Virus record (IMG/VR): IMGVR_UViG_3300024262_000094
Coordinates: 1-39,459 of that record
Strand: one strand, 5' to 3'
Source: a virus
Length of the DNA: 39,459 nucleotides
Part shown: positions 9,601 through 37,073 of the stretch, piece by piece
Position numbering within the stretch: position 1 is the first letter of the stretch
Layout of the letters: each line of letters opens with the position of its first letter
Translations under genes and position numbers: made by a program
The notes under the pieces: model-generated
Told to the model about the DNA's origin: nothing
The model's database searches: none
Seen by the model: the letters and a program-made list of their open reading frames with translations, nothing else

Positions 9601-9651
9601 ATAAAAAAGAGCACCAAAGACTGAGATTTTATTCTCAATCGATGGTGCTCT
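9601..9651 (-). terminator. Rho-independent terminator of the exported-protein unit
   Basis: On the minus strand the 9-pair stem AGAGCACCA/TGGTGCTCT (9643-9651 with 9608-9616) has an inner TGAGA/TCTCA hairpin and is followed by TTTTTTAT. It lies after the exported protein gene ending at 9701. A second copy of the 5' arm (AGAGTGCC) lies just upstream and can also pair with the 3' arm using G-U pairs. Confidence 0.85.
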
Positions 9652-9700
9652 AAGGCACTCTACAAATTCTATTCGGTTTTTAGGAATTAGTTATTAATTA

Positions 9701-11379: not shown

Positions 11380-14300
11380 TCACCACCCCCCTGATGCAGT
11401 TACACTTTTCCAACCAGCAGCAGTATAAACGTGCAACAAACTGTCAGCTCCACCCTCTTTGGCTATTATTTGCCCGGCATAATTATTTTCAGTTGGGGCA
11501 TTTACACTTACTCCCAAATATAATTGTCTTGTTCCAGTCCAAAACATAAGACTACTTAAAGCATTTCCAGTCCCTAAAACTATTTGATTACCGTTTGTAA
11601 TAAAACCAGCAACTCCATTAGCCTTTTGACCCATAAAAAGAGCATAAGCTCCAGCATATAAACGGAAGTCTGTTTCTACGGGTGAGTCTGTAGAATGATA
11701 AGTCAATCGTGCAAAATCTAACGTACTATATTTAAAATAGATTTGCTTATCGCCACCACTAACAGCGTCATACATCCTAATTGCACTATCTTCAAAATAT
11801 ATATCCTCGTTAGTTCCGCCACCAACATATATCTTTTTCACTTTAATTAAATCTGTTCTTAAATAACCGCCTGAAATTATAGTCGTTCCCAAGTCAGTAT
11901 TTGCTATCTCATCTTTAATTGCTAAGTCTCCAGCGTCTGTTAGGTTAGCTATGCCAGAACCGCCGGTTATTGTTACAATTCCTGCAATATTTAGATTTGC
12001 CCCATCCCATTTTAGATATTGAGTATTAGTTCCGATATGTAATTTATATTTGTCTACATTATAACCCATCCAAAAACCAGCAACAGCATCACCATAAGTT
12101 TTACCGGATGATCTAATAAAGCCAGTGGCATTTAAAGTGATATTACCAGCCGTGATAGTTCCTAAATCTGCATTTAGAGCTGATAGATTATCTAATGAAA
12201 CTAAACCTTTTATTGTTAGGGCGGCACCATCCCATTTTAAATATTTTGTGGCATTGCCGATGTTGAGTTTATATTTATCTACATTGTAGCCTAACCAGAT
12301 TCCCGCTGTTTCACTCGCATAAGAAGTTTTATTCAATACAATCGCATTGTTATCCAAGTCAAAATAAGTTAACCCATCAGTCGATTCAATTTTACCTGTC
12401 CGGATAAATTTTCCATTTATGATCGTCTGGCCGTAAGTTAAGGATACTCCCCTCACACTGTCAACTACGCTATGTAATACTCCGATAAGGAAATAATAAT
12501 ATGTGGCGTCATCATCGAATTTTCTTTGAGTGCTGTCTACTACAATCTGTCCGGTATAGCCCTCTTTTGTGCATTTTGCATAAATATAATATGCTGTTTC
12601 GTTTACTAAGCTGTCTTGAGTATTTGCCGATAATGTCCAGGTTGTAATTTCATCAGCGATTGATAAATGAATTAAACTTCCGGCACTGGCATGGAATTTA
12701 GACACATCAGAAGTATAATTCCCTTCAATTTCAACACCGGATAAAATAAATTGGGTTGATTTTGATCCCACTGACAACATTCCGGTTTCAACTGACTCAG
12801 GTCTAATTTTCCCCATATCAAAATATCCGTCTGTGTCAAAGACCATCGTTCTTAATTCTTCTGATGTTCGCCAGTTTCGCCTTGACCGGATAATGTCACC
12901 ACCATAACCGATTTCTACTTTTTCTTTTAAATCTTCCTGTTCAGAATATAGCCGTTGGATTAACTGCACTTCTAAATGGTCAGTTAGTTTCAGAGTATAT
13001 TTGTATTCATTAGCCACCGATTTAGTTAATTCTACAATCCGGGTCATAACATCTATACCCAAATCTGTATCTTGTATGGTAATAAAATCCCCTACTTTAA
13101 GAACAATAAAACCGGTTTGGAAAAATCGCCAGTCGGGTTCGAGTATATAGGTTACTCTCGGTTCACAATTATCATTAAGGTAAGTTTGAGCTTTGGCCTG
13201 CAGGGCTGTTTCAGCAGTGTCAATATAAGATTGTGGAAGATATATTTCAAGTAAAACGTATTTATCGCCAACAGCAGGTTTTAAGGTGGCATTTGGCAGG
13301 GTATAACCAACTTCGTCTTGATAAGCAATAATGGTAAATTCTTTGGTAACGTTATTATAATTAGCTACTTCAAATTCATACCCACCCAAATTTCCAGAAT
13401 TAAAATGTATTTTTGCGGTTACTCCGGGAAGTAAATAATCATTAAGATTAAACATGAGAGGCTCATTAGTATCGGTAAATTTTGTTATATCTCCTCCGTC
13501 AACTGCGCTAATCGTTCCTTCCCGGTGAGGATAAATATCATTAAATAGTTCAGTTTGTTCAATTGTGCCATACTTATCAATATTTTTCTCAAGATATGAT
13601 TTGCCACCAATGGTTACAAATTTTAATCTTCTGGAATGGTCTCTATAATCACTTGACAGATTTTTTTCTGAGCCAAAAGCATATAGCCGGGTAATAATAT
13701 TCTTTTCGCTTAGTGTAGAGCGTTGTATATTTCTCAAACCCTGTTTATACATAAAAGTTAAACCGGAATTACTACCTGCCTTGTCAGTAAAACAAATATC
13801 CTTCTTTGTATAATTAATAGTCGTTTCGGCAGGTCTATATTCGTGGTCAGCTTCAGCAGCGGGTTTATAGCCTATTACTGCTCCGCCTGCAGGGTAATAA
13901 GGTAATTCGGCACCCTCAGCAAAATATAAATCAAAATCAAAGTAAAATTCCCCTTCAAATTCATCACAAAGTTTTTGTAAAACCTGCATACAGTTAGCTT
14001 TTGAAAAACTTAACAATTTATATTCTTGATTTGTCTGGTCGCAAGTTCCCTTTGCCCATCCAGGATGTAAACGGTTCATGTTAGTTATAATAAGGTCAAT
14101 AAATGTTTCTAAATTGCCTACCAAATAAAAATCACTATTCCCATCTAAGTCCATGAATTGGGTCTTTAATAATTCGTAATATTCTGATTCAAAAATTACG
14201 TTGTAGTCAAAGGAATTGGAAGAATTTTTCTTGATATCGGGTAAATTATTTATATAATACTTAATACCATCAAAGACAATATAATCACCGATTTGAATAT

Positions 14301-14430
14301 CTAAAATAATATGAGAATTAAAAGATGATTTGACAATATCAGCACCCAGTAATTGTTTTGTGAGCCTTGTAGAATCGTCAATTTTTATTGTTACCCAGAT
14401 TTCAGTTCCTCGAAATATATTAAGATTCAA
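11380..14430 (-). CDS. Tail tip / tail-associated protein (1016 aa)
   Basis: Position after the distal tail protein and the N-terminal 400 residues (baseplate hub-like beta domains, with a YYELLKTQFMDLDG region) fit a Tal/tail tip protein. The second half carries fibre-type repeats: two units with DKYKLNIGN..KYLKWDGAAL and DKYKLHIGT..QYLKWDGANL, each ending in I-x-G, plus a GKIESTDGLTYFDLDNN block common in receptor-binding proteins. No separate peptidase motif is seen. The start is TTG behind AAGGAGAAATAAATA. One repeat reappears in the membrane protein at 30436-30657. Confidence 0.8.
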   Translation of the reverse strand: MNLNIFRGTEIWVTIKIDDSTRLTKQLLGADIVKSSFNSHIILDIQIGDYIVFDGIKYYINNLPDIKKNSSNSFDYNVIFESEYYELLKTQFMDLDGNSDFYLVGNLETFIDLIITNMNRLHPGWAKGTCDQTNQEYKLLSFSKANCMQVLQKLCDEFEGEFYFDFDLYFAEGAELPYYPAGGAVIGYKPAAEADHEYRPAETTINYTKKDICFTDKAGSNSGLTFMYKQGLRNIQRSTLSEKNIITRLYAFGSEKNLSSDYRDHSRRLKFVTIGGKSYLEKNIDKYGTIEQTELFNDIYPHREGTISAVDGGDITKFTDTNEPLMFNLNDYLLPGVTAKIHFNSGNLGGYEFEVANYNNVTKEFTIIAYQDEVGYTLPNATLKPAVGDKYVLLEIYLPQSYIDTAETALQAKAQTYLNDNCEPRVTYILEPDWRFFQTGFIVLKVGDFITIQDTDLGIDVMTRIVELTKSVANEYKYTLKLTDHLEVQLIQRLYSEQEDLKEKVEIGYGGDIIRSRRNWRTSEELRTMVFDTDGYFDMGKIRPESVETGMLSVGSKSTQFILSGVEIEGNYTSDVSKFHASAGSLIHLSIADEITTWTLSANTQDSLVNETAYYIYAKCTKEGYTGQIVVDSTQRKFDDDATYYYFLIGVLHSVVDSVRGVSLTYGQTIINGKFIRTGKIESTDGLTYFDLDNNAIVLNKTSYASETAGIWLGYNVDKYKLNIGNATKYLKWDGAALTIKGLVSLDNLSALNADLGTITAGNITLNATGFIRSSGKTYGDAVAGFWMGYNVDKYKLHIGTNTQYLKWDGANLNIAGIVTITGGSGIANLTDAGDLAIKDEIANTDLGTTIISGGYLRTDLIKVKKIYVGGGTNEDIYFEDSAIRMYDAVSGGDKQIYFKYSTLDFARLTYHSTDSPVETDFRLYAGAYALFMGQKANGVAGFITNGNQIVLGTGNALSSLMFWTGTRQLYLGVSVNAPTENNYAGQIIAKEGGADSLLHVYTAAGWKSVTASGGW

Positions 14431-17800: not shown

Positions 17801-18747
17801 GTCCCCTGTGCCATTGCGTCTAAAGATGCTGTATATTTGTCAGCGTCTAAAGCTAAAGCTCCAATTAAACCTCTGATGTTCGGGAAAATGGCTGCAAGTT
17901 TTTCCATTTTATCAACATCATTACCAACTGCCTTTTGCATTTCTAATATTATATAAGAAAATCCTTTAGTTTTTAAAGTAGCAGCATCAAATTCAATACC
18001 TAATTCTTTAATCATATCTTTGGCTTCTTGGCCAGGTGATATAATTGCTGTTAAAATACCCCTGATTGCCGTTGTCATAATGTCTATTGGTAAGCTCTTA
18101 ACGCCTGTAGCAATAGAAGCCATTAAATCTTCGAAAGATCCGCCAGCTTGGGCCCACATTCCAGCAACCTTTGAGACTGCGGGAGCTAATTCTTCCATGC
18201 GCGTTTTTCCTAATTTAACTGTCATAAAGAGTTTGCCAGCAATATTTTCAGCATCTCCAGCGGCTTCACCGAAAGAGTTCATTATATAAGTCATTGCATC
18301 AGCGGCGGTAAAAGTATCGGTTACACCAGCGACGGCAAGTTCAGCAGAAACTTTAAGTATATCCATAGCCTTTTTTCCGTCATAGCCGGCCGACACAATT
18401 TGATAAAGAGCTTTGGTTAGTTTTTGGGCACTATCGGGGACGGTCTTTGACATATTAATAATTTCTTGAGAGATCCCCTTGTAATTATCTTGAACCGCTT
18501 TTGAAATTGTCTGGACTTCCTTCATGGCAGTTTCGAAGTCTTTGGCAAAATTGTAGGCCTGTTTGGTTATCTTTGCAAAGACCATAGCGGCGCCGATACC
18601 CAACCCAGCAAAGATATCCATTCCAGTTACTTGACGGGATAATAGACTTAATATTCCTTTGGATTTAACTGCACCCGCTTGGAGTCCAGTCGTATCCAAC
18701 CCCGTACGCCAATATAAAGAATCTGATCCACCTACATTAAGAGGCAT
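14875..18747 (-). CDS. Tail tape measure protein (1290 aa)
   Basis: The TP901-type tape measure core lies at about 65-340 (phrases FETAMKEVQTISK, IVSAGYDGKKAMD, GGSFEDLMASIATGVKSLP). Long charged coiled coils follow (about 370-960), then a hydrophobic glycine-rich stretch (about 960-1030, GIGNISIGFSIGGIGG) likely to insert into the host membrane. At about 0.15 nm per residue the tail would be near 190 nm (family rule, inference). The start overlaps the HNH gene by 11 bases. Confidence 0.92.
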   Translation of the reverse strand: MPLNVGGSDSLYWRTGLDTTGLQAGAVKSKGILSLLSRQVTGMDIFAGLGIGAAMVFAKITKQAYNFAKDFETAMKEVQTISKAVQDNYKGISQEIINMSKTVPDSAQKLTKALYQIVSAGYDGKKAMDILKVSAELAVAGVTDTFTAADAMTYIMNSFGEAAGDAENIAGKLFMTVKLGKTRMEELAPAVSKVAGMWAQAGGSFEDLMASIATGVKSLPIDIMTTAIRGILTAIISPGQEAKDMIKELGIEFDAATLKTKGFSYIILEMQKAVGNDVDKMEKLAAIFPNIRGLIGALALDADKYTASLDAMAQGTEEFNKATKTMIDTTENQFAILHNNLMAKLKPLGDSILKTMNNMAKGINIAMSGATDELSNMSRVYSELTDTLRKKKSRIDELTKTIEDLQSKTKLTKEETVELTAAEKALGVYYPTLGENINSVTGEVNLLSAAKKDLIDLSKEIAELELKQAKIAVIQAKLDVDQYNLGKDESNKTIEGLKKQIKAIKDYIEVGEGQFQFVKTDKERIQKQNELLVLEGKLALATEGRVYEGLKLNLIYDATIEKEKELNRLIAGGKPIVIPKPPKGKGPDKDTITTVNIEEVEAQLKYMASQYKLYLSDIAARGEDWVKENNALLFKEGSNYAQFLSDMAVMYQGNAELNRQISDDIYEYNKTITEKKKKLEDELYEYITEARKKDLKAEEDIFESIIKNYEEGSTEYLSAVEKHNKNILEINDKYNKEIAEAAFTIFKEGLERQIGETDKLYKVRLETARAGLYKETEANKEYYEFVTIALNKIAIKEKEAAKEKRELLDSYFAAYQTIEEKIVSIHKKTAELLLLTDDKYEKERLKNIEERLIAEIEYGEASEEIFGGRDKNIQELNNQQLENYIAFLEEMKLKYSNFAELMIEIDEKIYESQKQIWENVRSEIDDTVSALHNLADAVGNFDTELEKAINDLADLVSGIGNISIGFSIGGIGGIATALGGIATVIGSIINLFVKHKSDVPELQEELAGITLELQKQQNILNQATGMAETAAIKERITLLQKQIDVYNDLIAAEEAAYGQFLWWTWDETNQEAIDNWLSSIESINAEIFNLNQQYQEILTGTTAETIADAIAEGFSQGLDSAQVFADTFNDMMKKAIMDAFKRTIITQHIQNWLEGFANLTEGGLTPGEIDYAASTYLILLSRIETKWEAIQAVLEAAGIELEGVAETISDVTGLTGAIAGITEETAGLLAGQFMAIRINTVEILGNMESIIIINSQIAEHTSYNRYLENIWNKMNAGGSLENETLRSIGG

Positions 18748-19474
18748 AAACTTTCTCCTTCATTTTTTTATGACATTTCTCACATAAAGTTATACCGTTG
18801 TTTATATCCCAAAATTCCTCACATAACATAGCTTCTTCTAAAGTTGTTATCTCATAATATTGTAATATTTTAGAAAAATTTTTAATATGATGAGCATTTA
18901 ACTTTTTGCCTTTATCACCACATCCTTGGCAGGTAAAATCATCCCTACAATAAACATCAAATCTCCATTTTTTATATTTATCAGAATTTCTTATCTTATT
19001 TCTAAGTGTGGATATACCACCTTTCCAACTTGGATTTTTATCCCCTAATTTGGATTTTCTTATTTTTTCTTTTTCTTCTTTTGTATGATGTCTTCCATAT
19101 ACAGGATGATTTTTACCAATTACTCCAAACCAACAACTGTCTATTCCGCAGCATTTACCTTCCCGGGATTTACTCATCTTTTCTAAAGTTTCCTCAGAAT
19201 AAATTCCAGTTTCCCCTTTATTCCAGGGGATATTCCCTTCAAGACTATTCTTTATCTTTAATTTTGTTTCTTGGCTATGATGTTTATCTTTCCAATATCC
19301 GGGTTTTCCTTTATGAATTTCACTCATATGTTCCTTATAATCTTCATCTTGCCAATTTTTTAATCCTGCAATCCTTATTTTCTTTAAAGTTTCATCGCTT
19401 AAATTCTCTTTTAAATGGGCAACTCTATTCTTTTCTATAGCTTCTTTTGAACGTTCATATACTCCAGTCGGCAT
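18737..19474 (-). CDS. HNH homing endonuclease with NUMOD3 repeats
   Basis: 245 aa. The N-terminus MPTGVYERSKEA is followed by NUMOD3 repeats (HLKENLSDETLKK, and three further 'E-T-L/K-x-K' units). A C-terminal HNH domain has CQGC, AHHI, and DINNGITLCEKCH, with both zinc-binding CxxC pairs and the catalytic His. The ATG abuts the stop of the glycosyltransferase gene. Its stop overlaps the start of the tape measure gene. Free-standing homing endonucleases spread by cutting related phages that lack them. Confidence 0.85.
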   Translation of the reverse strand: MPTGVYERSKEAIEKNRVAHLKENLSDETLKKIRIAGLKNWQDEDYKEHMSEIHKGKPGYWKDKHHSQETKLKIKNSLEGNIPWNKGETGIYSEETLEKMSKSREGKCCGIDSCWFGVIGKNHPVYGRHHTKEEKEKIRKSKLGDKNPSWKGGISTLRNKIRNSDKYKKWRFDVYCRDDFTCQGCGDKGKKLNAHHIKNFSKILQYYEITTLEEAMLCEEFWDINNGITLCEKCHKKMKEKVYAS

Positions 19475-20668
19475 TTATTTATCTTCCTTAATTAATCTTT
19501 TCCTTGTCTTTTCTGTAGCTGAAAAAATATCCCACCTCAGAGGTAATCTTCCCTTATTCATCATTATCCCTTTGTTTAATATCTCTCCACTTTTCTTATA
19601 ATTCCCTTTCTCAAAGTAATAGGTCGCTAAATAATTTAGTATTTCAGGAAGTATTACTTTGGTATTTGATATTAATAAACCCTCGTATAAACTACCTTTT
19701 TTTTCACAAATATTTACAGCAATCTCGAAATATTCTTTTGCTTTTTCGTCATCTTTCCCTGTATACCAATTTCCGAGCATTAAATATAGTTGGGATATTC
19801 TACTCGAGTAGTGACAGGCCTCCCTCTCTACCCTTTCAGCATTTTTGATGTCATCAATGGCTAAATAGGCGCCGAGAATATTGCAAAATGGCTCAAGAAA
19901 CGCTGTCCAGCCCTCATTATATTTTGCTTTTCTCATTTGCTTCATCCATATCTTTCCGTATTTAATAGTGTTTTTAAAGTCGCGTGTTACATAATAGGTT
20001 TTGACTAAGTGAGTTAAATTATGCAAATTATCCGGATGTTCTTTATATTCCTTTTCGAGCATTGGCAGGCTACGTTCCATTTTATGGTCATATAGCTTTT
20101 CGCCCTTTTCGCCTTCAAAAACATAGCCATAATGATTCAAAATTATATGGGGAGCAAATAAATAGGGAGCTTTTAGGACAGGTTTATTATGCACCGCCTG
20201 CTCATAACAAAACTCACCATCATTTTTAAATAGCCGGGGTTGTAACATTTCAGAATATTGCTTCAAATCCCTGGTATGGTAATTATAAAGTTTTACAAAT
20301 ACTGCCGGCTCTTTATAGTTTGGATTTAATATAATATCTTCTAATTTATATAGAGAGTTTTGCCTAAGTTCCTCATCAGCGTCTACTATAAGAATCTTAT
20401 CCCCGGTAGCTTTTCGTATCCCATAGTTGCGAGCCTCACTAAAGTTCCAGGGAATAAATTCTTTCTCATATACTTTGTCAGTAAACTTCCTAGCAACATT
20501 AACCGTTCTATCTGTTGATCCTGTGTCAACTATTATTAATTCCGTTAAATTTTCTAACGTTTTATCGTCTTTCATCATAATAATAGGTAAGAAAGAATCT
20601 AAGCACCTTTGTAAATTCGCTTCCTCATTTTTAACAATTAAACATATTGACAATTTCGGTTTATTCAA
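19475..20668 (-). CDS. Family 2 glycosyltransferase with TPR-like C-terminus
   Basis: 397 aa. GT-A fold: LSICLIVKNEEANLQRCLDS at the N-terminus, IIVDTGSTDRT, then ILIVDADEELR (metal-binding DxD), followed by MLQPRLFKND typical of the SunS/SPBc2-like GT2 group. From about 190 on, helical TPR-like repeats (YEKGNYKKSGEILNKGI) may hold a protein acceptor. It starts at TTG behind AAGGAGAAATAA. It is inserted between the tail chaperone and the tape measure, where no sugar gene is expected. It might glycosylate a tail protein. Confidence 0.8.
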   Translation of the reverse strand: MNKPKLSICLIVKNEEANLQRCLDSFLPIIMMKDDKTLENLTELIIVDTGSTDRTVNVARKFTDKVYEKEFIPWNFSEARNYGIRKATGDKILIVDADEELRQNSLYKLEDIILNPNYKEPAVFVKLYNYHTRDLKQYSEMLQPRLFKNDGEFCYEQAVHNKPVLKAPYLFAPHIILNHYGYVFEGEKGEKLYDHKMERSLPMLEKEYKEHPDNLHNLTHLVKTYYVTRDFKNTIKYGKIWMKQMRKAKYNEGWTAFLEPFCNILGAYLAIDDIKNAERVEREACHYSSRISQLYLMLGNWYTGKDDEKAKEYFEIAVNICEKKGSLYEGLLISNTKVILPEILNYLATYYFEKGNYKKSGEILNKGIMMNKGRLPLRWDIFSATEKTRKRLIKEDK

Positions 20669-21440: not shown

Positions 21441-21740
21441 TTAATCTAAATTATCATGAACTACAAAACTAACTGTTTCTCCATACCCTTTCCAAGTTGG
21501 TGATTCTATATATAATTGAATATCCCATTTTCCCGCAACATCTAAATCATTTGCTATTGTGATATAGTATGCGTAATTCGTTCCTTCTGGTACAGCAACC
21601 CATTCTCCTTTTATTCTCGATGTACCAGGTTTAGAATATATAACTTTCCAAACAGTAGCTCCAATACCAGTGGCAGATATATCACACCCTGCGTCTAATT
21701 TAATTTTTGTTCCTATATCATTTTTATATATTTTACTCAT
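21441..21740 (-). CDS. Beta-sandwich structural protein (99 aa)
   Basis: Begins MSKIYKNDIGTKIKLDAGCD and contains ATVWKVIYSKPGTSRIKGEW, close to the N-terminal immunoglobulin-like module of BppU and related baseplate/tail accessory proteins. The start overlaps the stop of the repeat protein (TGATG). It is probably a virion accessory protein. Confidence 0.55.
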   Translation of the reverse strand: MSKIYKNDIGTKIKLDAGCDISATGIGATVWKVIYSKPGTSRIKGEWVAVPEGTNYAYYITIANDLDVAGKWDIQLYIESPTWKGYGETVSFVVHDNLD

Positions 21741-23929
21741 CAGTCTGTCTCCAAATTAATTTTAGAATTAAACGTAACCTCTCTTGTAATTCCCGAAGCT
21801 AACGAAATTTCTTTTGTTATGGTTGAGCTTAACGCAAGCTCTTTTATTATGTTAGAATCTAATGTAAGTTCCTTTGTTATATATGAAAGGAAAGTTATAA
21901 TTTCTTTAAATCGAAAGGCAGTTCCACCAAATGTAAACTGTCCACTACTTACATATACATAGAACACAGCTTCAGTTTCGTAAATACATTCGGCAATTCC
22001 CGAGTAGATAAATTCTCCACTGCCCGCATACAGATAATTACGTGAATATACTTGTGTTGCCGTCCCTGAACAGGTGAAATCTCCACTACCTATATAAAAA
22101 AATCCAATACTATAAAGAGCAGTGCCACTATAAAGTAATTGCCCACTTGCCGAATATGAAAAATTTCTACTATAAAGACAAGGTGCAATTCCCGAAAAAG
22201 CAAACGTTCCATTCCCTATATAAGCAAAATTAAATGTGTAGGATTGTGTGGCGTCTCCACTATAGGCAAAACTACCACTTCCCATATAAGATAATCCTAA
22301 ACTGTAAAGACCTGTTCCATTAAATTGACAAGTTCCACTTCCTATACAGGTAAAGCCGACTGTTATTGTCACCTCTCCTGAATAGGTTAATTCTCCACTT
22401 CCCGTATATAAATAGTAACGGGAATGTGTTTGAGTGGCAGTTCCGATAAAAGCAAGTGAACCACTGCCAACGTATTCAAAATTTGCAGTAGTTTGATAAC
22501 TACAAATAGCACTACCAGAAAAAGCAAATTGCCCACTACTTATATAAGTAAATCCAATTTCTGCTATAGCAATTCCGCTATAAGTAAAATCGCCACTTGC
22601 TGTATAAAGGTAGTCTGTTGAATGAACTTGTATCGCAGTCCCTGAATAAATTAAACTTCCGCTTGCTGTAGTGAGATAATTAAATGTAAAAGTCTGGTCT
22701 GCACTACCAGAAAAGGCTAAACTTCCACTACCTTCATATAGATAATTCTTTGAATATACCTGAATGGCACTACCAGAAAAAGCAAATTGACCGCTTGCTG
22801 TAGTGAGATAATTCCTCGTATGAGATTGGGTTGCAGTTCCCGAATAAGCGAATGAGCCAGTGCCTGTATAAGTAAAGTCACCTTCTGGTGGAGCTTCTGC
22901 TGCCGCCTTAATAATCACCGTAGCCGCCGCCCATTCTTCAGAGGCACTCATACCGAATACTGCTGTGCCTGTTTCGCCTTCGGTAGTATCTATTGTGTAA
23001 AAATCTACTTCCATTAAAAATGCAGTTTTAGCAGTAATAGCAGTATTATAAAATTTAACCCTCATTGCTGTTACAGTTTGGGTTGAACCAATCTCTTTTT
23101 CTACCCATTCTTCGTTGGCAAAAATACCTTCATAAATATTATGCCAACCAGCACCCCCGCCATCATCATAATAAACATCTAAACTTATTTCCGTAATACT
23201 TGTGTAATAGTAATATGCCCAAAATCTCACCTTTGAACAACTTATAGCAGAATGAGTAAGTTCTAAATAATCACTCCAAGAAGTTGCGGGTATAGGGTTA
23301 ATTGCATAACTTACAGTATTATTATCATAAACATTTGCTCCATTAGTCCAAGCAGTATCAGGGTCGTTAAAACCTGTCGGTGAAATCCAATTATCACCTG
23401 CGGGAGCTTCCTTCTCTCCCCCAGCACCACCAATAGTTCCCGCCTCGTCATTAAATCTTGACGCCAGTTGTGCAGGAAAGTTATAAGGAAAACTCTTTGA
23501 AGGATTATCTGCACCAAACATCTGCAAGACTAAACTGCCTGCTGTTAAATTCGTAAAAGCTACTGAAGGGGCTATCGGGGCAGCGTCTACGCCCGATGCA
23601 CTGCCAGAATCATAAATAGGTGTAGTTGCGTCATGTCCAGTATAGCGAAGGATAACGCCGTAGTAATCCTCACTGCTTTCTTTCCAAGTCCACTGCGTAT
23701 CTCCATCTGCGAAAAGTTTCCAAGCTACATAAAGACGCATAGCTGCGTTGCCTGCTGTACTGACAATAACGTTCCAATCACTCCCACTGGTTAAGGTAAC
23801 TGCCTCGTCATCATCTTTGGCAATATAACAAATGAGTAAATCACCAATGGCAGAATTTTCAGGAGCGGCAATAGTTATACTTGTTCCAGTAGCTTTTACT
23901 ATTCTTGAGTTCTGAAATACTACAGCCAT
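21740..23929 (-). CDS. Large Ser/Thr-rich repeat structural protein (729 aa)
   Basis: Residues 1-350 look like a folded beta-rich adhesin or carbohydrate-binding region (for example AGSLVLQMFGADNP and EISLDVYYDDGGGAG). Residues about 356-672 hold about 15 copies of a 21-24 aa unit, consensus GSGxFxYSGxAxxxxSxNYxY. Residues 684-723 hold four copies of a 10-aa unit (ITKELTLDSN and variants). The repeat part should form a stiff beta rod. It lies between tail tube genes and the tail chaperone, so it may decorate the tail. It is dense in Ser/Thr and thus a candidate glycosylation target. Confidence 0.7.
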   Translation of the reverse strand: MAVVFQNSRIVKATGTSITIAAPENSAIGDLLICYIAKDDDEAVTLTSGSDWNVIVSTAGNAAMRLYVAWKLFADGDTQWTWKESSEDYYGVILRYTGHDATTPIYDSGSASGVDAAPIAPSVAFTNLTAGSLVLQMFGADNPSKSFPYNFPAQLASRFNDEAGTIGGAGGEKEAPAGDNWISPTGFNDPDTAWTNGANVYDNNTVSYAINPIPATSWSDYLELTHSAISCSKVRFWAYYYYTSITEISLDVYYDDGGGAGWHNIYEGIFANEEWVEKEIGSTQTVTAMRVKFYNTAITAKTAFLMEVDFYTIDTTEGETGTAVFGMSASEEWAAATVIIKAAAEAPPEGDFTYTGTGSFAYSGTATQSHTRNYLTTASGQFAFSGSAIQVYSKNYLYEGSGSLAFSGSADQTFTFNYLTTASGSLIYSGTAIQVHSTDYLYTASGDFTYSGIAIAEIGFTYISSGQFAFSGSAICSYQTTANFEYVGSGSLAFIGTATQTHSRYYLYTGSGELTYSGEVTITVGFTCIGSGTCQFNGTGLYSLGLSYMGSGSFAYSGDATQSYTFNFAYIGNGTFAFSGIAPCLYSRNFSYSASGQLLYSGTALYSIGFFYIGSGDFTCSGTATQVYSRNYLYAGSGEFIYSGIAECIYETEAVFYVYVSSGQFTFGGTAFRFKEIITFLSYITKELTLDSNIIKELALSSTITKEISLASGITREVTFNSKINLETD
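21761..21880 (-). repeat. Four tandem 30-bp repeats (10-aa units)
   Basis: Encodes four consecutive units of the pattern I-T-K-E-L/I-x-L-x-S-x at the C-terminus of the repeat protein. The DNA copies have diverged but keep the AACGAAATT/AACGCAAGCTC-type words every 30 bases. Confidence 0.75.
21914..22864 (-). repeat. About 15 coding tandem repeats of 63-75 bp
   Basis: Each copy encodes a unit with SG-x-F-x-Y/F-SG-x-A. Unit length varies by whole codons, so the frame is always kept. The copies have diverged but several pairs share long identical words, as expected for repeated duplication and recombination. Confidence 0.8.
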
Positions 23930-25104: not shown

Positions 25105-25848
25105 TTATTTTATTAATAATTTATTTAAAATATTCTCTTCATTAACTTCAATTTCATTAAAATACATTATTTGCCAGCCATACTGTTTAAATACTTCTGA
25201 CCTTTGGATTTTCCAATCTTCTATGCTATCGTGATTTCTTTTCTTATAGTATCGAGCATAAACCTCTACTGCTATTTTTTCGCTGTTAGTATTAATAAAA
25301 TCAGGATTATACCTGCCTATAATAAAAGAACCATTGCCGACATATTTGTAAGGTAAATTATGTTTATCCACTATGGATTGAAACTTTTCTTCTAAGCTCG
25401 TTGGGATTCGCCTGTGTAAAATTTTCTTAAGTTGTTCTTTGGTAAAATTATGTTTACCTTTTTGAGATTCACTCATCTTTTTTAAAGTCTCATCGGTTAG
25501 ATTTTCCTTTAAATGACTAATTCTCATTTTTTCTAAAGTTTCCTCTGAATAATGTTTACCTAATTGAGCTTTTCTCATATTTTCTCTTGCTTCTTCAGTA
25601 TAATTCTTCCCTAAATGAGAAAGTCTCATCTTCTCTTTAGTCTCTTCCGAATGATGTTTACCTAAATTAGCCAATCTCAATTTTTTTTTAACTTCTTTTG
25701 AACGATGTTTACCATAAAAAGGATGATTCTTGCCTGATTTAGCAATACTTAATTTCTGTTTTATCTCTTCTGTAGGATATTTACCTAAACAAGCAAAACT
25801 GATTTTTTGCCTAATCGCTTCTGTTCTTTCGTATACTCCTCTGGGCAT
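25105..25848 (-). CDS. NUMOD3-repeat homing endonuclease, Vsr-like nuclease domain
   Basis: 247 aa. MPRGVYERTEAIRQ is followed by about six NUMOD3 units (KHHSEETKEKMRLSHLGKN and variants). The C-terminal nuclease has YNPDFI ... IAVEVYARYYKKR and ends QYGWQIMYFNE, the PD...E arrangement of Vsr/restriction-like endonucleases. It shares MPxGVYER and HLKEN-L-(T/S)-DETLKK with the HNH enzyme at 18737, although their nuclease domains differ. It is inserted between the tail completion and tail tube genes. Confidence 0.78.
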   Translation of the reverse strand: MPRGVYERTEAIRQKISFACLGKYPTEEIKQKLSIAKSGKNHPFYGKHRSKEVKKKLRLANLGKHHSEETKEKMRLSHLGKNYTEEARENMRKAQLGKHYSEETLEKMRISHLKENLTDETLKKMSESQKGKHNFTKEQLKKILHRRIPTSLEEKFQSIVDKHNLPYKYVGNGSFIIGRYNPDFINTNSEKIAVEVYARYYKKRNHDSIEDWKIQRSEVFKQYGWQIMYFNEIEVNEENILNKLLIK

Positions 25849-30015: not shown

Positions 30016-30072
30016 AAAAAAAAAGAGCCAGCCTAAGAAGATTCGATTAAAAATCATTCTTAAGTTGGCTCT
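30016..30072 (-). terminator. Rho-independent terminator of the cargo block
   Basis: Minus strand stem AGAGCCA/TGGCTCT with an inner CTTAAGAA/TTCTTAG hairpin, followed by nine T residues. It ends the transcript of the three small membrane/soluble genes at 30117-30657. It shares the pattern AGAG-NN-CCTTAGAG with the terminator at 9601-9651. Confidence 0.88.
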
Positions 30073-30116
30073 CTAAGGGGCTCTCGTTAATTTATTATTT
30101 AATTTTCAAATATTAT

Positions 30117-30332
30117 TTACTTTTCAATAAATTCCAATATCTTTATAGGAACATTATTTATATCCGCTCCCATATAAGCACCTTTTAATGTGCATACCTT
30201 TTCTTTGTCATTAATATTAATAACTTCAAATGCACCATCGTCTGTATAAACTACCGTTCCATTGCGGTCATTTATTAGTAATGGAGCTTTTTCTTTGTCT
30301 TTAATTCTGGCTTTCATATTATCCCTTTCCAT
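30117..30332 (-). CDS. Hypothetical soluble protein (71 aa)
   Basis: Beta-rich protein with LLINDRNGTVVYTDDGAFEV and a helical end. An alternative start at Met6 has a better AAAGGGAT site. It is the last gene of the small promoter-terminator unit. Function unknown. Confidence 0.6.
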   Translation of the reverse strand: MERDNMKARIKDKEKAPLLINDRNGTVVYTDDGAFEVININDKEKVCTLKGAYMGADINNVPIKILEFIEK

Positions 30333-30335
30333 AAA

Positions 30336-30443
30336 TTACCTTTGTAAATTATGTACTTTTATACTTAACCAAATATAAAACCCTATTGCAAAAACTGCAA
30401 CTACTCCAGCACATATATAACCTGCTATTTCGGAATTATCCAT
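30336..30443 (-). CDS. Membrane micropeptide (35 aa)
   Basis: Begins MDNSEIAGYICAGVVAVFAI and ends KVHNLQR. One membrane helix with an acidic N-terminus and basic C-terminus, so it probably has its N-terminus outside. Its ATG overlaps the end of the 73-aa membrane gene (ATGGATAA), with a GGGAG site. Likely translationally coupled to it. Confidence 0.55.
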   Translation of the reverse strand: MDNSEIAGYICAGVVAVFAIGFYIWLSIKVHNLQR

Positions 30444-30657
30444 TTAAACTCCCTTTAATTTCTAATTGGTTTCCATCCCATTTTAAATAGTGTATATCAT
30501 TACCAATATTCAATTTTAATTCATCCCAATCTTTAAAATGAAAATCTGTTTTCTGAAATTTTCTATACCATCTTTCAGTTTTATCAAAATAGATTATAAT
30601 AAATAAAGTTCCAAACCAACCTATTGCAAAACCAATTAAACCCATAATTACGTTCAT
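30436..30657 (-). CDS. Membrane protein carrying a tail-tip repeat (73 aa)
   Basis: One membrane helix (LIGFAIGWFGTLFIIIYF) is followed by a basic linker, then ELKLNIGNDIHYLKWDGNQL and IKG. That last segment closely matches the repeats of the tail tip protein at 11380-14430 (KLNIGN..KYLKWDGAAL..IKG). An in-frame TTG lies 6 bases earlier, but the ATG at 30657 has the better TAGGAG spacing. It is the first gene behind a perfect promoter. A membrane-held copy of a tail-tip piece suggests an immunity or exclusion role; that is inference. Confidence 0.65.
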   Translation of the reverse strand: MNVIMGLIGFAIGWFGTLFIIIYFDKTERWYRKFQKTDFHFKDWDELKLNIGNDIHYLKWDGNQLEIKGSLNG

Positions 30658-30682: not shown

Positions 30683-30711
30683 ATTATATAACAGAATTTT
30701 TTATATGTCAA
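30683..30711 (-). promoter_or_regulatory. Consensus sigma-70 promoter of the membrane-protein unit
   Basis: Minus strand TTGACA (30706-30711), a 17-base spacer, then TATAAT (30683-30688). Both boxes are perfect. It lies between the glycosyltransferase stop and the 73-aa gene start, and the unit ends at the terminator at 30016. Confidence 0.87.
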
Positions 30712-30722
30712 CTTTTCTATCA

Positions 30723-31643
30723 TTAAAATATTTCTCTTAATTCTTTCAATTGATTTTCGAGTGTCCAGCCTTTATTAATTACCCAACTTCTATATAGTTT
30801 AGAATTATAATCTCCATCAGTTATTTCTATTACTGCTTCATTAATTGTATTGAAGATAACATCTTTGGGATACAATCCTTTAGCACCCCTGAAATCATGA
30901 ATGATAGGTTTTATCCCTCTTGAAAAAGCCTCAAGTATTGCGTAAGAATGTCCCTCGTGGATTGATGTATGCAAGAGATAATTTATATCTTCCCAAAAGC
31001 CTTCCATGTCATCTATCCAGCCATGAAAAATGACGTTATCCTCTAGTCCCATTTCTTTTATTATGTGTTCAAGGTATATTTTATACCGTAAGTCCTGATA
31101 TGCCCCAGCCACGTGTAATAAGTATCTCTTATCAATATCTACCAGCTTTTTCATTATCTGTAATGCCATTTGCGGATTCTTCTTGTAATTAATATACCCG
31201 ACTAAGGCGATGTTATGCCCCGGCTCTCTCTCTTTGAATGGGATTTTATCTATATCTACCCCATTATAAACTACCGTAGTTTCTACTTTTTCTATAATTC
31301 CAGGAGATAATTCATTTAAGATCTCTCTAATATGCGGAGCTACAAAGATTAAACTATCTACCACATCCCAGTTAATTTGTTTCGGGAAGTCGGTAAATAT
31401 TTCATAGCTGTGAAGCCGGACTATTACCTTTTTCCCTTTTATATTTTTATAGTTAGTCCCTATAACAGCCGATTCATTCGCCCATTCGAAGAAGATCGTA
31501 TCGCCCCAGTCAATTGCATTAAAAATATCCCATTTAGTCCTTACTACAAACTTCCTAACTGTATAATCACTTGCCAACCCTTCAATTATCGGGTCAATGA
31601 AATTATCAAGATCTGCAGCACAAATTACACTTACTTTTTCCAA
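30723..31643 (-). CDS. GT-B glycosyltransferase, family 4-like (306 aa)
   Basis: The C-terminal half shows the GT4 pattern: a NIALVGYINYKKNPQMALQI strand-helix, LHVAGAYQDL, NVIFHGWID, and the donor-binding LHTSIHEGHSYAILEAFSRG with its conserved Glu residues. The N-terminal acceptor domain is short (FFEWANESAVIG). It starts at TTG with GGAGGAAGAAA. It is last in the sugar gene block and probably transfers the sugar made by its neighbours. Confidence 0.8.
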   Translation of the reverse strand: MEKVSVICAADLDNFIDPIIEGLASDYTVRKFVVRTKWDIFNAIDWGDTIFFEWANESAVIGTNYKNIKGKKVIVRLHSYEIFTDFPKQINWDVVDSLIFVAPHIREILNELSPGIIEKVETTVVYNGVDIDKIPFKEREPGHNIALVGYINYKKNPQMALQIMKKLVDIDKRYLLHVAGAYQDLRYKIYLEHIIKEMGLEDNVIFHGWIDDMEGFWEDINYLLHTSIHEGHSYAILEAFSRGIKPIIHDFRGAKGLYPKDVIFNTINEAVIEITDGDYNSKLYRSWVINKGWTLENQLKELREIF

Positions 31644-31658
31644 TTTCTTCCTCCTTTT

Positions 31659-31997
31659 TTACTTTCCATTTAACACCCTCATATACTCCCTCACAAACTC
31701 CGGGTTATCCCGAATAAAGCAGGTAACGCCAGTAGTGAGTTGAATATTCATATTCTCATCATTATTACAATCAAAGCGCATTTCATATTTTATACCATGC
31801 ATAGCTTCATGTAAGATAACCTGCAATTCATATTGATAATTAAGTGAATCAAGTATTTCTATTTCTTTATCCCCTTCATCAATATGACCATCTAAAGAAC
31901 GTCCATCTTTTACAATTATTTTATGATATGTAATTATATAGTCACTCGAAACAATTCTAACCTTCTCAAACTTTATCCGTTTCTCTTTTTGTTTCAT
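31659..31997 (-). CDS. HExxH metallopeptidase-like protein (112 aa)
   Basis: Contains a zinc-binding HEAMH motif (His63-Glu64-His67) in a helix (ELQVILHEAMHGIKYEM), like small ImmA/IrrE-type or related minimal metallopeptidases. A third ligand may be in the acidic stretch after it (DCNNDEN). The gene lies within the sugar block but need not be functionally linked. Confidence 0.6.
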   Translation of the reverse strand: MKQKEKRIKFEKVRIVSSDYIITYHKIIVKDGRSLDGHIDEGDKEIEILDSLNYQYELQVILHEAMHGIKYEMRFDCNNDENMNIQLTTGVTCFIRDNPEFVREYMRVLNGK

Positions 31998-32008
31998 AAT
32001 CCCCCTTC

Positions 32009-32755
32009 CTATCCTACATAAAACTTTTGATTCTCTATTAACTGATCACTAAGTACATTCCGTATAACCCGAGCAGGTGACCCCATAACCACCATTCGAG
32101 CAGGTACATCTTTGGTAACTATTGAACCCGCCGCAACCAAAGCATCCTCGCCTATAACTTTACCCGGAAGTATAACCGCCCCTGCTCCGATTCTACCGCC
32201 TCTTTCTACTCTAACACCGCAAAAATGTTTGAATCGTTCTTCTGTCCTACCCAAATAATTATCATTACTTGTGACTACTCCGGGAGCAATAAAAACATAA
32301 TCGCCTAAATAGGAATAAGCTGTAATATAACAGTTACTTTCTAACTTACAACGTTTACCTATCATTACATAATTTTCAATGGTTACGCCCCTGCCGATAA
32401 TGGTATATTCGCCTATTGTAGTATTTTCTCTTATAGTAGCCAAGTCAGCTACCATAACATTGTTAGCAATTTTAGAACCTATATAAATAACCGTGTTGGT
32501 CCCGATTATACAATTATCGCCTATAACTGTTGGAGCTAAATTTAAATCCTCTTTAAAAATGCTTATACTTGCTCTCATGGGAAGTTTCCCGATTACTGCA
32601 TTATCATCAATTCTAACGTTGTCGCCGATAACAGTGCCGTTTCTAATTACTACATTATAGCCAAACTTACAGTTTTTTCCGATGATTACTTTGTCCTCAA
32701 TAATTGTAGTTCTCACCATACTAAAATCTTCAAAATCGTTTAAATAATCCCTCAT
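32009..32755 (-). CDS. Left-handed beta-helix acetyltransferase, WbpD/WlbB-like
   Basis: 248 aa built of hexapeptide repeats ([IVL]-G-x-x): [20 protein letters not shown] and onward through [20 protein letters not shown], then VMGSPARVI. Enzymes of this type acetylate amino groups on nucleotide sugars using acetyl-CoA. With the WbpB-like and WbpE-like genes it would complete the 3-acetamido group. Length is a little above WbpD/WlbB. Confidence 0.75.
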
Positions 32756-32757
32756 AA

Positions 32758-33138
32758 TTACCTCCCAATAATTTTTATTTTAACGACTTCTGGGTTTATC
32801 ATAAGTCTATTTATATAAATCCATTCTGGTTCGTTTAAACATTTTTCACCACCTTGAGGATATGGTACATGGATTATTCCACTTACAAAAACATCATCTT
32901 CGTCATCCCCTGGTAATGTAAAAATATAACCATAGTCTGGTTGGTTATATCCACATCTTTTCCGCCAATATATTTCTACTTTTGCACCAGGATTTATAGG
33001 AGGATTAATCTGTTCTATTTTTTTATAATCTGAATCAAGGATTTTATATGTTTTAGTAAGTCTACGTTGTTCCTCATCTTCGCTACAGATATTTACATCT
33101 TCAATTAATTCCATTAATGTTGAATTTATTAAACTCAT
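32758..33138 (-). CDS. Hypothetical protein (126 aa)
   Basis: A soluble protein with a helical acidic N-terminal part ([19 protein letters not shown]) and a beta-rich C-terminus ([19 protein letters not shown]). A GTG at 33150 is in frame, but the ATG at 33138 sits at proper distance from GGAGGTGA, so I choose the latter. It lies between two sugar genes and is unrecognised. Confidence 0.6.
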
Positions 33139-33146
33139 AATTTTTA

Positions 33147-34262
33147 TCACCTCCCCTCAAATACAAACTCTTCCGAACTTATATCCGACCCTTCATCAGC
33201 ACCTATAGCCCTCGAATATTTTTGAGACTTATAGGCCATCAAAATTATGCTTAAAGATTTTCTTCCTTCATTGCCATCTATCAATGGAGTATCATTATTC
33301 CTAACCGCCCATATAAAATCTGCATATAACGGAGTATGCCCATCGCCATAGATATTACCGTCCCCTAAATCATATTCCCTTTTTACCTGCTCTAATGAAT
33401 CCCGCCTGTCTTCAAAGTCCCAAACTAAGATCTTATTTAAGGCCAACCCGCCTATAACCGCAGTCCCCTTTTCCCCTAATATGGTAAGTGTTTCCTCTAA
33501 GTTTGTAGGATAGACATTAACAGTCCCCTCGACATTTCCTATAGCTCCATTGTTAAACTTAATGATAATGCTTCCATAGTCTTCAGCTTGAATATAGGGA
33601 TGTAAGAAATTCCCAGTCTGGCCATAAACGGAGTATATCCCGCTGTCTATCATCCATTGTAAGAGGTCTATATTGTGGGTGCATTGGTTTAATAAGCAAC
33701 CGCCGTCTAATTTCCAGGTACCTCTCCAGCCTGCTTTACTGTAATATTCTTTACTTCGATTCCATAAGATCCTGGCAGTACCGGCAAAGATTCGGCCAAA
33801 ACGCCCTTCTTCGACTGCCTGCCTCAATTTCTGTATAGGCTTATTAAATCTATTCTGGTGACAAACTGCTAACTTTAGCTTATTGTTATGAGCAGTTTTT
33901 ATCATCACGTTAGCACCTGATATTGACATGGCCATTGGTTTTTCTACGATGACATGTTTGCCGTGGTCAAGGCAGTAGAGGGCAATCCCAACATGATAGC
34001 CAGATTCGGTACAAATAGAACAGATATCTATGTCCTCTTTTTGGAGCATTACGCGGTAATCAGAATATACTTTAGGCCATGTAATTAAAACATATCTTTC
34101 CCGTGCTTTTGATAGATATTCGGTAGCTTTAAATCCAGCCTTACTCTCTATAACATCGCAGACCGCCACAAGCTCTATTTCACAATAATTGTCTAATACC
34201 GCTTTCAGGTGATTATCTGATATCCTTCCACAGCCTATTAGGGCTAATTTTAATTTACTCAT
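33147..34262 (-). CDS. Nucleotide-sugar 3-dehydrogenase, WbpB/WlbA-like
   Basis: 371 aa Gfo/Idh/MocA oxidoreductase. The N-terminal Rossmann motif is ALIGCGRISDNH, followed by VIVEKPMAMS (conserved EKP). The next region reads WNRSKEYYSKAGWRGTWKLD, then GGCLLNQCTHNIDLLQWM, a stretch I know from WlbA/WbpB enzymes that oxidise C3 of UDP-GlcNAcA. Product would be the 3-keto sugar for the adjacent aminotransferase. Confidence 0.82.
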   Translation of the reverse strand: MSKLKLALIGCGRISDNHLKAVLDNYCEIELVAVCDVIESKAGFKATEYLSKARERYVLITWPKVYSDYRVMLQKEDIDICSICTESGYHVGIALYCLDHGKHVIVEKPMAMSISGANVMIKTAHNNKLKLAVCHQNRFNKPIQKLRQAVEEGRFGRIFAGTARILWNRSKEYYSKAGWRGTWKLDGGCLLNQCTHNIDLLQWMIDSGIYSVYGQTGNFLHPYIQAEDYGSIIIKFNNGAIGNVEGTVNVYPTNLEETLTILGEKGTAVIGGLALNKILVWDFEDRRDSLEQVKREYDLGDGNIYGDGHTPLYADFIWAVRNNDTPLIDGNEGRKSLSIILMAYKSQKYSRAIGADEGSDISSEEFVFEGR

Positions 34263-34280
34263 TTAACCCCCTCATATTTT

Positions 34281-34559
34281 TTAATAATTGTCATTACACT
34301 CTTCCAATCTATTTTTTAATTCTCTATCTAATTCTTCACTTATATCAAAATTCATTAATTCATCGTGTTTTATTAATTTAATTTCAATTTCATCTAATTT
34401 TGATTCATCTAATTCATTTTCAAGACATTCCCCTTCCACTAATGCATAGATATGGTCGAGATATTCTATCAATTCAGAGATTTTATATTTATAATTTGGT
34501 TTTGGTAAAACCTTTGTTTTATCTCCCTTTAAATAATCTATGTATTCTTTATTAATCAT
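34281..34559 (-). CDS. Hypothetical acidic protein (92 aa)
   Basis: Acidic, helical protein (ISELIEYLDHIYALVEGE; later SEELDRELKNRLEEC). Ribosome site GGAGGTAAAAATTAG. It lies between the aminotransferase and the dehydrogenase. No family is recognised. Confidence 0.6.
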   Translation of the reverse strand: MINKEYIDYLKGDKTKVLPKPNYKYKISELIEYLDHIYALVEGECLENELDESKLDEIEIKLIKHDELMNFDISEELDRELKNRLEECNDNY

Positions 34560-34575
34560 CTAATTTTTACCTCCT

Positions 34576-35751
34576 TCATAATTTATAAAATTCACTTATC
34601 TTACCTATTATATATTCCTGTTGTTCCCCTGTAAGCTCCGGATAAATCGGCAAAGCCAGCGCGTGTTTACTGGCATTTTCTGCAACGGGGAAGTCGCCTT
34701 CTTTGTAGCCTAAATATTTAAAACATTCCTGTAAATGTAGACACAATGGATAATAGATGTTCGTTCCTATACCGTTTTCTTTTAGGTATTTTTGCAGTCT
34801 GTTTCTGTCTCTTGCGTAGATTACATATTGGTTAAAGGTATGGTCTTTGTATTGGCTATAGCGGATATTATATAACGGAAGTTTTATCATATTTAACAAA
34901 CCATATCGTTCAAATAATAATTGATATCTATAGGCTACCTTAGCCCTATCTGCTAACCACTTATCCAAATATCTCAATTTTATAAGCAATATGGCAGCGT
35001 GAATTTCGTCTAAGCGGGAATTAATACCTATAACTTTATGATAGTATTTGGGGTCTGCACCGTGAGAACGGAATAAGCGGCAGTAATCAGCAAGTTCCTT
35101 TGAAGAGGTTACAATCATGCCTCCGTCTCCATAAGTGCCAAGATTTTTAGTAGGATAGAATGAGAAGGTTGTAAGGTCTCCGTAGCTTCCAGCTCTTTTG
35201 CCTTTATATTCTGAACCTATCGCCTGAGCGCAATCTTCTATTACTTTCAGGTTATACATGCAGGCTATATCCATTATCTTATCCATTTTACACATCTGGC
35301 CGAATAGGTGGACTGGGATAATTGCCTTAACGCCTAAGCCGGTTTCTTTATCTATTAATTGGCGACCTGCTAATATACAAATTTCATCGATATATTCTTG
35401 TAATTTTACAGGGTCTATATTATAAGTATCTGGTTCGATATCTACAAATATAGGGGTCGCTCCTGCTCTTACAATACTTCCAGCAGGAGCAAAGAATGTA
35501 AAAGGTGTCGTTATAACATAATCGCCCTTAGTTACTCCCAAGGCTTTTAGGGCTATATAGAGAGCGTCTGAACCGTTGGCCACGCCTACGCCGTATCTGG
35601 TTCCTGAATAGCATGCGAGAAAGTTTTCTATTAGTCTTACATTGCCACCATTGATAACTGTGCCTGATTCAAGAACGGATTTAATAGCTGTATTGATTTC
35701 TGATTTTATGGAAGCATATTGAGCCGTTAAATCAAATTGCGGTATTTTCAA
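34576..35751 (-). CDS. Nucleotide-sugar aminotransferase, WbpE-like (DegT/DnrJ)
   Basis: 391 aa PLP-dependent sugar aminotransferase. GVGVANGSDALYIALKALGV binds PLP phosphate, VIEDCAQAIGSEYKGKRAGS carries the Asp, and TTFSFYPTKNLGTYGDGGMI contains the internal aldimine lysine. SRLDEIHAAILLIKLRYLD completes the family signature. It would transaminate the 3-keto sugar from the WbpB-like enzyme. It starts at TTG behind GAAGGAGGGAATAAA and heads the sugar block. Confidence 0.85.
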   Translation of the reverse strand: MKIPQFDLTAQYASIKSEINTAIKSVLESGTVINGGNVRLIENFLACYSGTRYGVGVANGSDALYIALKALGVTKGDYVITTPFTFFAPAGSIVRAGATPIFVDIEPDTYNIDPVKLQEYIDEICILAGRQLIDKETGLGVKAIIPVHLFGQMCKMDKIMDIACMYNLKVIEDCAQAIGSEYKGKRAGSYGDLTTFSFYPTKNLGTYGDGGMIVTSSKELADYCRLFRSHGADPKYYHKVIGINSRLDEIHAAILLIKLRYLDKWLADRAKVAYRYQLLFERYGLLNMIKLPLYNIRYSQYKDHTFNQYVIYARDRNRLQKYLKENGIGTNIYYPLCLHLQECFKYLGYKEGDFPVAENASKHALALPIYPELTGEQQEYIIGKISEFYKL

Positions 35752-36845: not shown

Positions 36846-37073
36846 CTAAAATAATAATTCTGGGATAGCCTTTATTCGCCGTCTGGCTATCTCGCAATAT
36901 TCTGGATTCATTTCTATACCTATATACCTACGCCCTAATTCCTTACAAGCCACTCCAGTCGTGCCACTTCCTATAAATGGGTCAAGAATAATATCATCTT
37001 TTTTACTAAATTTAGATATTATGAATTTTGCCAAACCTATATGAAAAGCAGCATTATGTTCTGTTTCTCCTTT
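36846..37073 (-). pseudogene. C-terminal remnant of a DNA methyltransferase
   Basis: The frame from a stop at 37074 to 36846 encodes about 75 residues: HNAAFHIGLAKFIISKFS, then DIILDPFIGSGTTGVACKEL and YIGIEMNPEYCEIARRRI. This is the SAM-binding motif I end of beta-class N4/N6 DNA methyltransferases. The catalytic (D/S)PPY part, which precedes it in such enzymes, is absent. A TTG at 37034 could start a 62-aa fragment. A ribosome site remains near 37068 with a 5-codon ORF after it. It is likely a non-functional leftover between portal and minor head genes. Confidence 0.75.

What the first reader, a model, noticed from the sequence alone, without database searches (positions are those of the whole stretch)
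30436..30657. Membrane protein displaying a copy of the phage's own tail-tip repeat
After a single membrane helix, this small protein ends in a KLNIGN-x4-YLKWDG-x2-L-x-IKG segment almost identical to repeats near residues 700-830 of the tail tip protein. It is expressed from its own perfect promoter. A membrane-anchored piece of the receptor-binding apparatus is an unusual design. It could block the receptor or jam an incoming tail (superinfection exclusion). The match is seen; the role is inference.
Basis: partly seen in the sequence, partly recalled or inferred. Interest (0 to 1): 0.78.

Follow-up and report, generated by a model that had tools for sequence, protein, structure and literature searches.

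The report
Membrane protein with phage tail-spike segment
A bacterial virus carries, in a swappable accessory-gene slot, a tiny membrane protein whose end is a three-strand piece of the shaft of phage tail spikes; it probably faces the inside of the cell, so it could act on tails being built rather than on tails arriving, but nobody has tested what it does.

Summary
A 73-aa ORF (minus strand, 30436-30657) has one membrane helix and ends in 25 residues homologous to two repeats of the phage's tail-tip protein: 16/25 identical, far above shuffles, and detectable in DNA (69% over 93 nt). Three corrections. (1) It is not a recent copy of this virus's own gene: tail-tip repeats of sister phages are closer (17/23 aa; 76% DNA over 79 nt). 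(2) The repeat maps to the beta-prism shaft of T5 pb4, which has no direct role in receptor binding, and charges predict a cytoplasmic C-terminus. It is therefore probably not displayed, and receptor blocking or jamming an incoming tail is poorly supported. (3) The perfect promoter is not private: it is the conserved promoter of an accessory-gene (moron) slot; in relatives it precedes an unrelated gene, or none, before the same terminator element. The protein was found in only one virus (two contigs, 1 nt different over 11.4 kb); no other short membrane ORF with the motif turned up in non-exhaustive IMG/VR scans. Best guess, untested: a membrane-tethered decoy that interferes with assembly of related phages' tail spikes, working like Tai/Tab but with no shown homology to them. 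Superinfection exclusion and a functionless fusion remain open.

The parts
30683..30711 (-). Perfect sigma-70 type promoter TTGACA-17-TATAAT; slot promoter conserved in relatives
   Evidence: 12/12; 57/65 nt identical through RBS and ATG in L013 and 45/52 in L006; also 12/12 in L016 and L017
30436..30657 (-). 73-aa membrane protein: helix about residues 4-22 (with GxxxG), basic linker, tail-spike segment 44-69
30451..30525 (-). Segment homologous to tail-tip repeats (residues 45-69; predicted strands 50-52, 57-60, 65-68)
30336..30443 (-). 35-aa single-helix peptide overlapping the end of the 73-aa ORF by 8 nt (likely translationally coupled); a homolog sits alone in the same slot of L007 (6844-6948)
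30117..30332 (-). 71-aa soluble orphan protein, third gene of the cassette
30020..30104 (-). Conserved terminator-ended RNA element closing the cassette (AGAGxyCC ... AGAGy'x'CC-stem-GGxyCT-T run)
   Evidence: MFE -25.1 kcal/mol, z -4.4; 23-sequence alignment and pair counts
12199..12282 (-). Tail-tip repeat A (own phage) matching the 73-aa protein
11977..12057 (-). Tail-tip repeat B (own phage)
11380..14430 (-). Tail-tip protein, 1016 aa (Pfam Prophage_tail plus PB4_spike)
   Evidence: PF06605 4e-9, PF24168 3e-16; T5 pb4 3.6e-6

Best explanation
Shown: the 73-aa ORF is cargo of a moron slot (conserved promoter - exchangeable cargo - conserved terminator element) between the sugar genes and the scaffold gene, and its C-terminal 25 residues descend from a tail-tip spike repeat of this phage lineage. 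Inferred: the protein sits in the inner membrane with the spike segment in the cytoplasm; its helix (GxxxG pattern) may self-associate. Proposed mechanism (inferred, untested): the segment is a decoy strand unit of a trimeric beta-prism. It pairs with nascent tail-spike chains of related phages and tethers or mis-registers them at the membrane, so a co-infecting or later phage makes fewer working tails. That is tail-assembly interference with the outcome of Tai/Tab. The virus's own tail would have to escape by divergence of its repeats or with help of a cassette partner (35-aa or 71-aa protein).
For: Homology at protein and DNA level confined to the module's second half. Closest to tail repeats of sister phages (L038 17/23 aa; L034 76% over 79 nt) rather than its own (16/23 aa; 69%). 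C-in topology by charge, where nascent tails are. The repeat is a trimeric shaft element in T5, and the model gives three strands. Slot architecture typical of accessory genes. Precedent: tail-assembly interference aimed at the central tail fibre (PMC11364771) and at the tape measure (PMC10884400).
Against: No functional data; one virus only, so selection cannot be tested (1 difference in 11.4 kb). The segment lacks the first strand (AGFWLGY) of the module. Tab and Tai were not described as membrane proteins in the text read here. No integrase found, so prophage expression is unproven. Own-tail inhibition would need an escape that is not shown. The structure model is low confidence overall (pLDDT 55) and the Foldseek match to T5 pb4 is not significant (E 5).
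Confidence: 0.33

Rival explanations
1. Superinfection exclusion at the membrane: the protein interferes with adsorption or DNA entry of incoming related phages, through its helix or through an exposed tail segment.
For: Small phage membrane proteins from independently expressed cassettes often do this (HK97 gp15, P22 SieA: own knowledge; SieA paper PMC10883804 listed, not read). Promoter and slot fit.
Against: Predicted C-in topology; the repeat is spike shaft, not receptor-binding; no lysogeny genes found.
Confidence: 0.22
2. Accident without a tail-related role: a short tail-gene fragment was fused by illegitimate recombination to a small membrane peptide in a fast-turnover slot, and either drifts or serves only as a soluble end.
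For: Found in only one virus; the slot turns over, with different or no cargo in relatives. The last codons also supply a Shine-Dalgarno-like AAGGGAG for the 35-aa gene.
Against: The ORF is intact with a good RBS, and the segment keeps 16-17 of 23 residues identical to tail repeats while about a quarter to a half of the shared residues use different codons, more conservation than expected of a decaying fragment.
Confidence: 0.3
3. Helper of its own tail: a membrane-bound assembly or localisation factor that recruits the phage's own tail tip or regulates its trimerisation.
For: Same genome; same repeat family.
Against: Relatives that carry the same tail repeats and whose slot is covered (for example L010/L011/L037, one contig set, and L006) have no such gene; it is in a separate promoter unit, not beside the tail genes; the own repeat is not the closest.
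Confidence: 0.1

Closest known systems
Phage morons (independent promoter-gene-terminator units inserted among late genes)
   Same: Own perfect promoter, short cargo genes, strong terminator, placed between structural genes; cargo differs or is missing in relatives
   Different: Promoter and terminator element persist without cargo in relatives (L006, L016), so they form a fixed slot; lysogenic expression unproven
T5 pb4 straight fibre spike (Pfam PF24168, PDB 7zlv/7zn2/7zqb)
   Same: The C-terminal segment is homologous, via the tail-tip repeats, to the pb4 spike sheet
   Different: Only about 25 of about 40 module residues; attached to a membrane helix; not part of a virion protein
Tai / Tab tail-assembly blockers (PMC11364771, PMC10884400)
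   Same: Proposed outcome: interference with tail assembly, for Tai at the central tail fibre
   Different: No sequence link tested; a membrane anchor and mimicry by a tail-derived segment are not described for them in the text read here
Membrane superinfection-exclusion proteins (HK97 gp15, P22 SieA, T5 Llp)
   Same: Small membrane-associated phage proteins that protect against related phages
   Different: Not derived from tail-tip repeats as far as I know (own knowledge, not tested); predicted orientation here is cytoplasmic

Membership tests
Moron | Dedicated promoter immediately upstream | tested here: met
   TTGACA-17-TATAAT ending 25 nt upstream of the ATG; sequence match only
Moron | Terminator immediately downstream of the cargo | tested here: met
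   30020-30104 minus strand, dG -25.1 kcal/mol, z -4.4, run of T
Moron | Cargo absent or different at the same site in relatives | tested here: met
   L006/L016 none before the terminator element, L013 unrelated 79 aa, L007 homolog of the 35-aa peptide only
Moron | Expressed in the lysogen | not testable with these tools
   No RNA data; no integrase seen
PB4_spike / tail fibre protein family | 73-aa protein reaches the family model | tested here: not met
   No PF24168 hit at E<=1; PHROG 3890 only E 0.13 at residues 46-70. Homology of the segment rests on pairwise protein and DNA matches
Tai/Tab tail-assembly interference | Blocks tail assembly, tailless particles released | not testable with these tools
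   needs an infection assay
Tai/Tab tail-assembly interference | Sequence relationship to Tai or Tab proteins | not tested
   PADLOC 2023 gives no hit, but it predates both 2024 papers
Superinfection-exclusion membrane protein | Membrane localisation | tested here: inconclusive
   One strongly hydrophobic segment; prediction only
Superinfection-exclusion membrane protein | Effector part exposed where the incoming phage acts | tested here: inconclusive
   Charge rule predicts a cytoplasmic C-terminus; a prediction, not a measurement

The most novel reading that the evidence does not exclude
A phage has turned a strand unit of tail spikes of its own lineage into a membrane-tethered, cytoplasm-facing decoy that captures nascent tail spikes of competing sister phages: interference by self-derived structural mimicry.
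Probability: 0.25. Interest if true: 0.75.

Novelty: new variant of a known kind. Interest (0 to 1): 0.45.

Why it matters
If the protein interferes with tails, phages can build exclusion factors cheaply by tethering a fragment of a tail protein to a membrane helix, and the targets could be predicted from sequence alone (phages whose spike repeats are closest). It also gives a clear correction: resemblance to a 'tail tip' does not by itself mean receptor mimicry, since this repeat is shaft.

Tried and rejected
Chance resemblance: rejected (score 87 vs 58 maximum in 2000 shuffles; DNA match to sister tail genes E 1e-10 to 3e-10). Recent duplication of the own tail gene: rejected (69% DNA; closer relatives exist). 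N-terminal 'homologs' L211-L213 are antisense to the portal gene with stops inside: artefact. Genome hit L182 (Neolewinella) is an internal stretch of a large unrelated protein: chance. Weak plasmid hits (E 0.5 and above) are chance-level. PADLOC, NCBIfam and PDB sequence: nothing convincing for the 73-aa protein. Whether L034 and L038, the closest tail repeats, carry the gene is unknown: those contigs do not reach the slot. The AlphaFold model of the tail segment is poor (pLDDT 45) and is used only to note that the repeats show the same strand order. The host was not identified.

Full report
What is there. The window is a 39,459-nt IMG/VR virus record of a siphovirus-type phage (SPP1-like portal, Phage_cap_E capsid, tape measure, tail tip). 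The ORF lies on the minus strand, 30436-30657: 73 aa, one hydrophobic segment (residues 4-22), a basic linker, and a C-terminal segment DELKLNIGNDIHYLKWDGNQLEIKG.

The match is real. It aligns without gaps to two repeats in the 1016-aa tail-tip protein, 16/25 identical with the first; local score 87 against a best of 58 in 2000 shuffles. The DNA also matches: 69% over 93 nt, E 7e-7 in a 1.76-Mb set of loci. The homology covers about residues 44-69 only.

It is not a recent copy of the own gene. Repeats of sister phages are closer: L038 17/23 aa with 13 of 17 shared residues in the same codon, L034 76% over 79 nt (E 3e-10); the own repeat has 16/23 aa and 8 of 16 codons. A more distant phage tail (L104) also reaches 16/23. 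The module KTxY..xAGFWLGYxxxxYKLNIGxxxxYLKWDGxxLxIKG is widespread in tail fibres; the 73-aa protein has only its second half. [quoted passage not shown] AlphaFold on the 73-aa protein gives three strands (50-52, 57-60, 65-68, pLDDT about 80) in an otherwise unreliable model that leaned on a tail alignment; T5 pb4 is the best Foldseek match but not significant.

Topology. No charge precedes the helix; five basic and two acidic residues follow within 15. By the positive-inside rule the C-terminus is cytoplasmic. The 35-aa peptide that overlaps the ORF by 8 nt shows the same pattern. This is a prediction, not a measurement.

Context. The perfect promoter belongs to a slot. In L013 the same promoter, RBS and start (57/65 nt) drive an unrelated 79-aa protein; in L006 and L016 the promoter runs straight into a terminator-ended element; in L007 a homolog of the 35-aa peptide stands alone there. 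In each of these cases the same kind of element closes the unit. This is the layout of a moron with exchangeable cargo.

Distribution. The gene was found in this virus and in one 11.4-kb contig that differs from it by one base. Nineteen related records show no match other than in the tail tip, apart from three antisense artefacts; several of these records are fragments that do not reach the slot. Motif scans of viral contigs found no other short membrane ORF with it, but the patterns are not exhaustive. So selection cannot be tested.

Interpretation. A cytoplasm-facing, membrane-tethered spike strand unit fits best with interference in tail-spike assembly of related phages, as Tai and Tab do by other means (PMC11364771, PMC10884400). 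That step is inference. Superinfection exclusion and a functionless fusion are serious rivals. No integrase was detected in the window or in 12 relatives, which weakens every reading that needs a prophage, though the records may be fragments.

The terminator element (side observation). Twenty-three copies were aligned. The terminator stem pairs in 99.5% of cells, with three pairs changed on both sides. An invariant upstream half-site AGAGxyCC carries a dinucleotide complementary (G-U allowed) to that of the stem's 5' arm in 21 of 23 copies, with five cells changed on both sides at one pair, so an alternative pairing is possible. It occurs at least twice in the window (30020-30104 and 9601-9685), and Rfam has no match there.

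Noticed in passing
window 30020-30104 (-) and 9601-9685 (-); also L005-L007, L009, L010, L013, L014, L016-L018, L020, L034, L035, L038-L041, L045: A recurring terminator-ended RNA element with an invariant extra half-site AGAGxyCC upstream of the stem; the xy dinucleotide covaries with the stem, allowing an alternative 4-bp pairing (possible attenuator or small RNA). In L006, L016 and L017 it follows a perfect promoter directly. No Rfam match in the window.
   Followed up: partly
window 30093-30127: 18-nt near-perfect tandem duplication TATTATTTAATTTTCAAA just upstream of the terminator element.
   Followed up: no
window 1224-1196 and 368-340 (-): Two further perfect TTGACA-17-TATAAT promoters in the left end, ahead of small unannotated ORFs.
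   Followed up: no
window 30723-35751 (-): Sugar-modification cluster (aminotransferase, Gfo/Idh oxidoreductase, hexapeptide transferase, glycosyltransferase) inside the head-gene region; relatives keep the glycosyltransferase followed by a methyltransferase-like gene.
   Followed up: no
window 36846-37034 (-): 62-aa remnant matching only the C-terminal end (170-220 of 221) of the N6/N4 DNA methylase family.
   Followed up: no
window 21740-23929 (-): 729-aa protein without family match, with many degenerate repeats of the type GSGxFxYSGTAxxxY.
   Followed up: no
window 25510-25697 and 18737-20668: 51-bp tandem repeats inside a homing-endonuclease-like gene (25105-25848), and a NUMOD3/HNH endonuclease gene (18737-19474) next to a glycosyltransferase gene between tail genes.
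   Followed up: no
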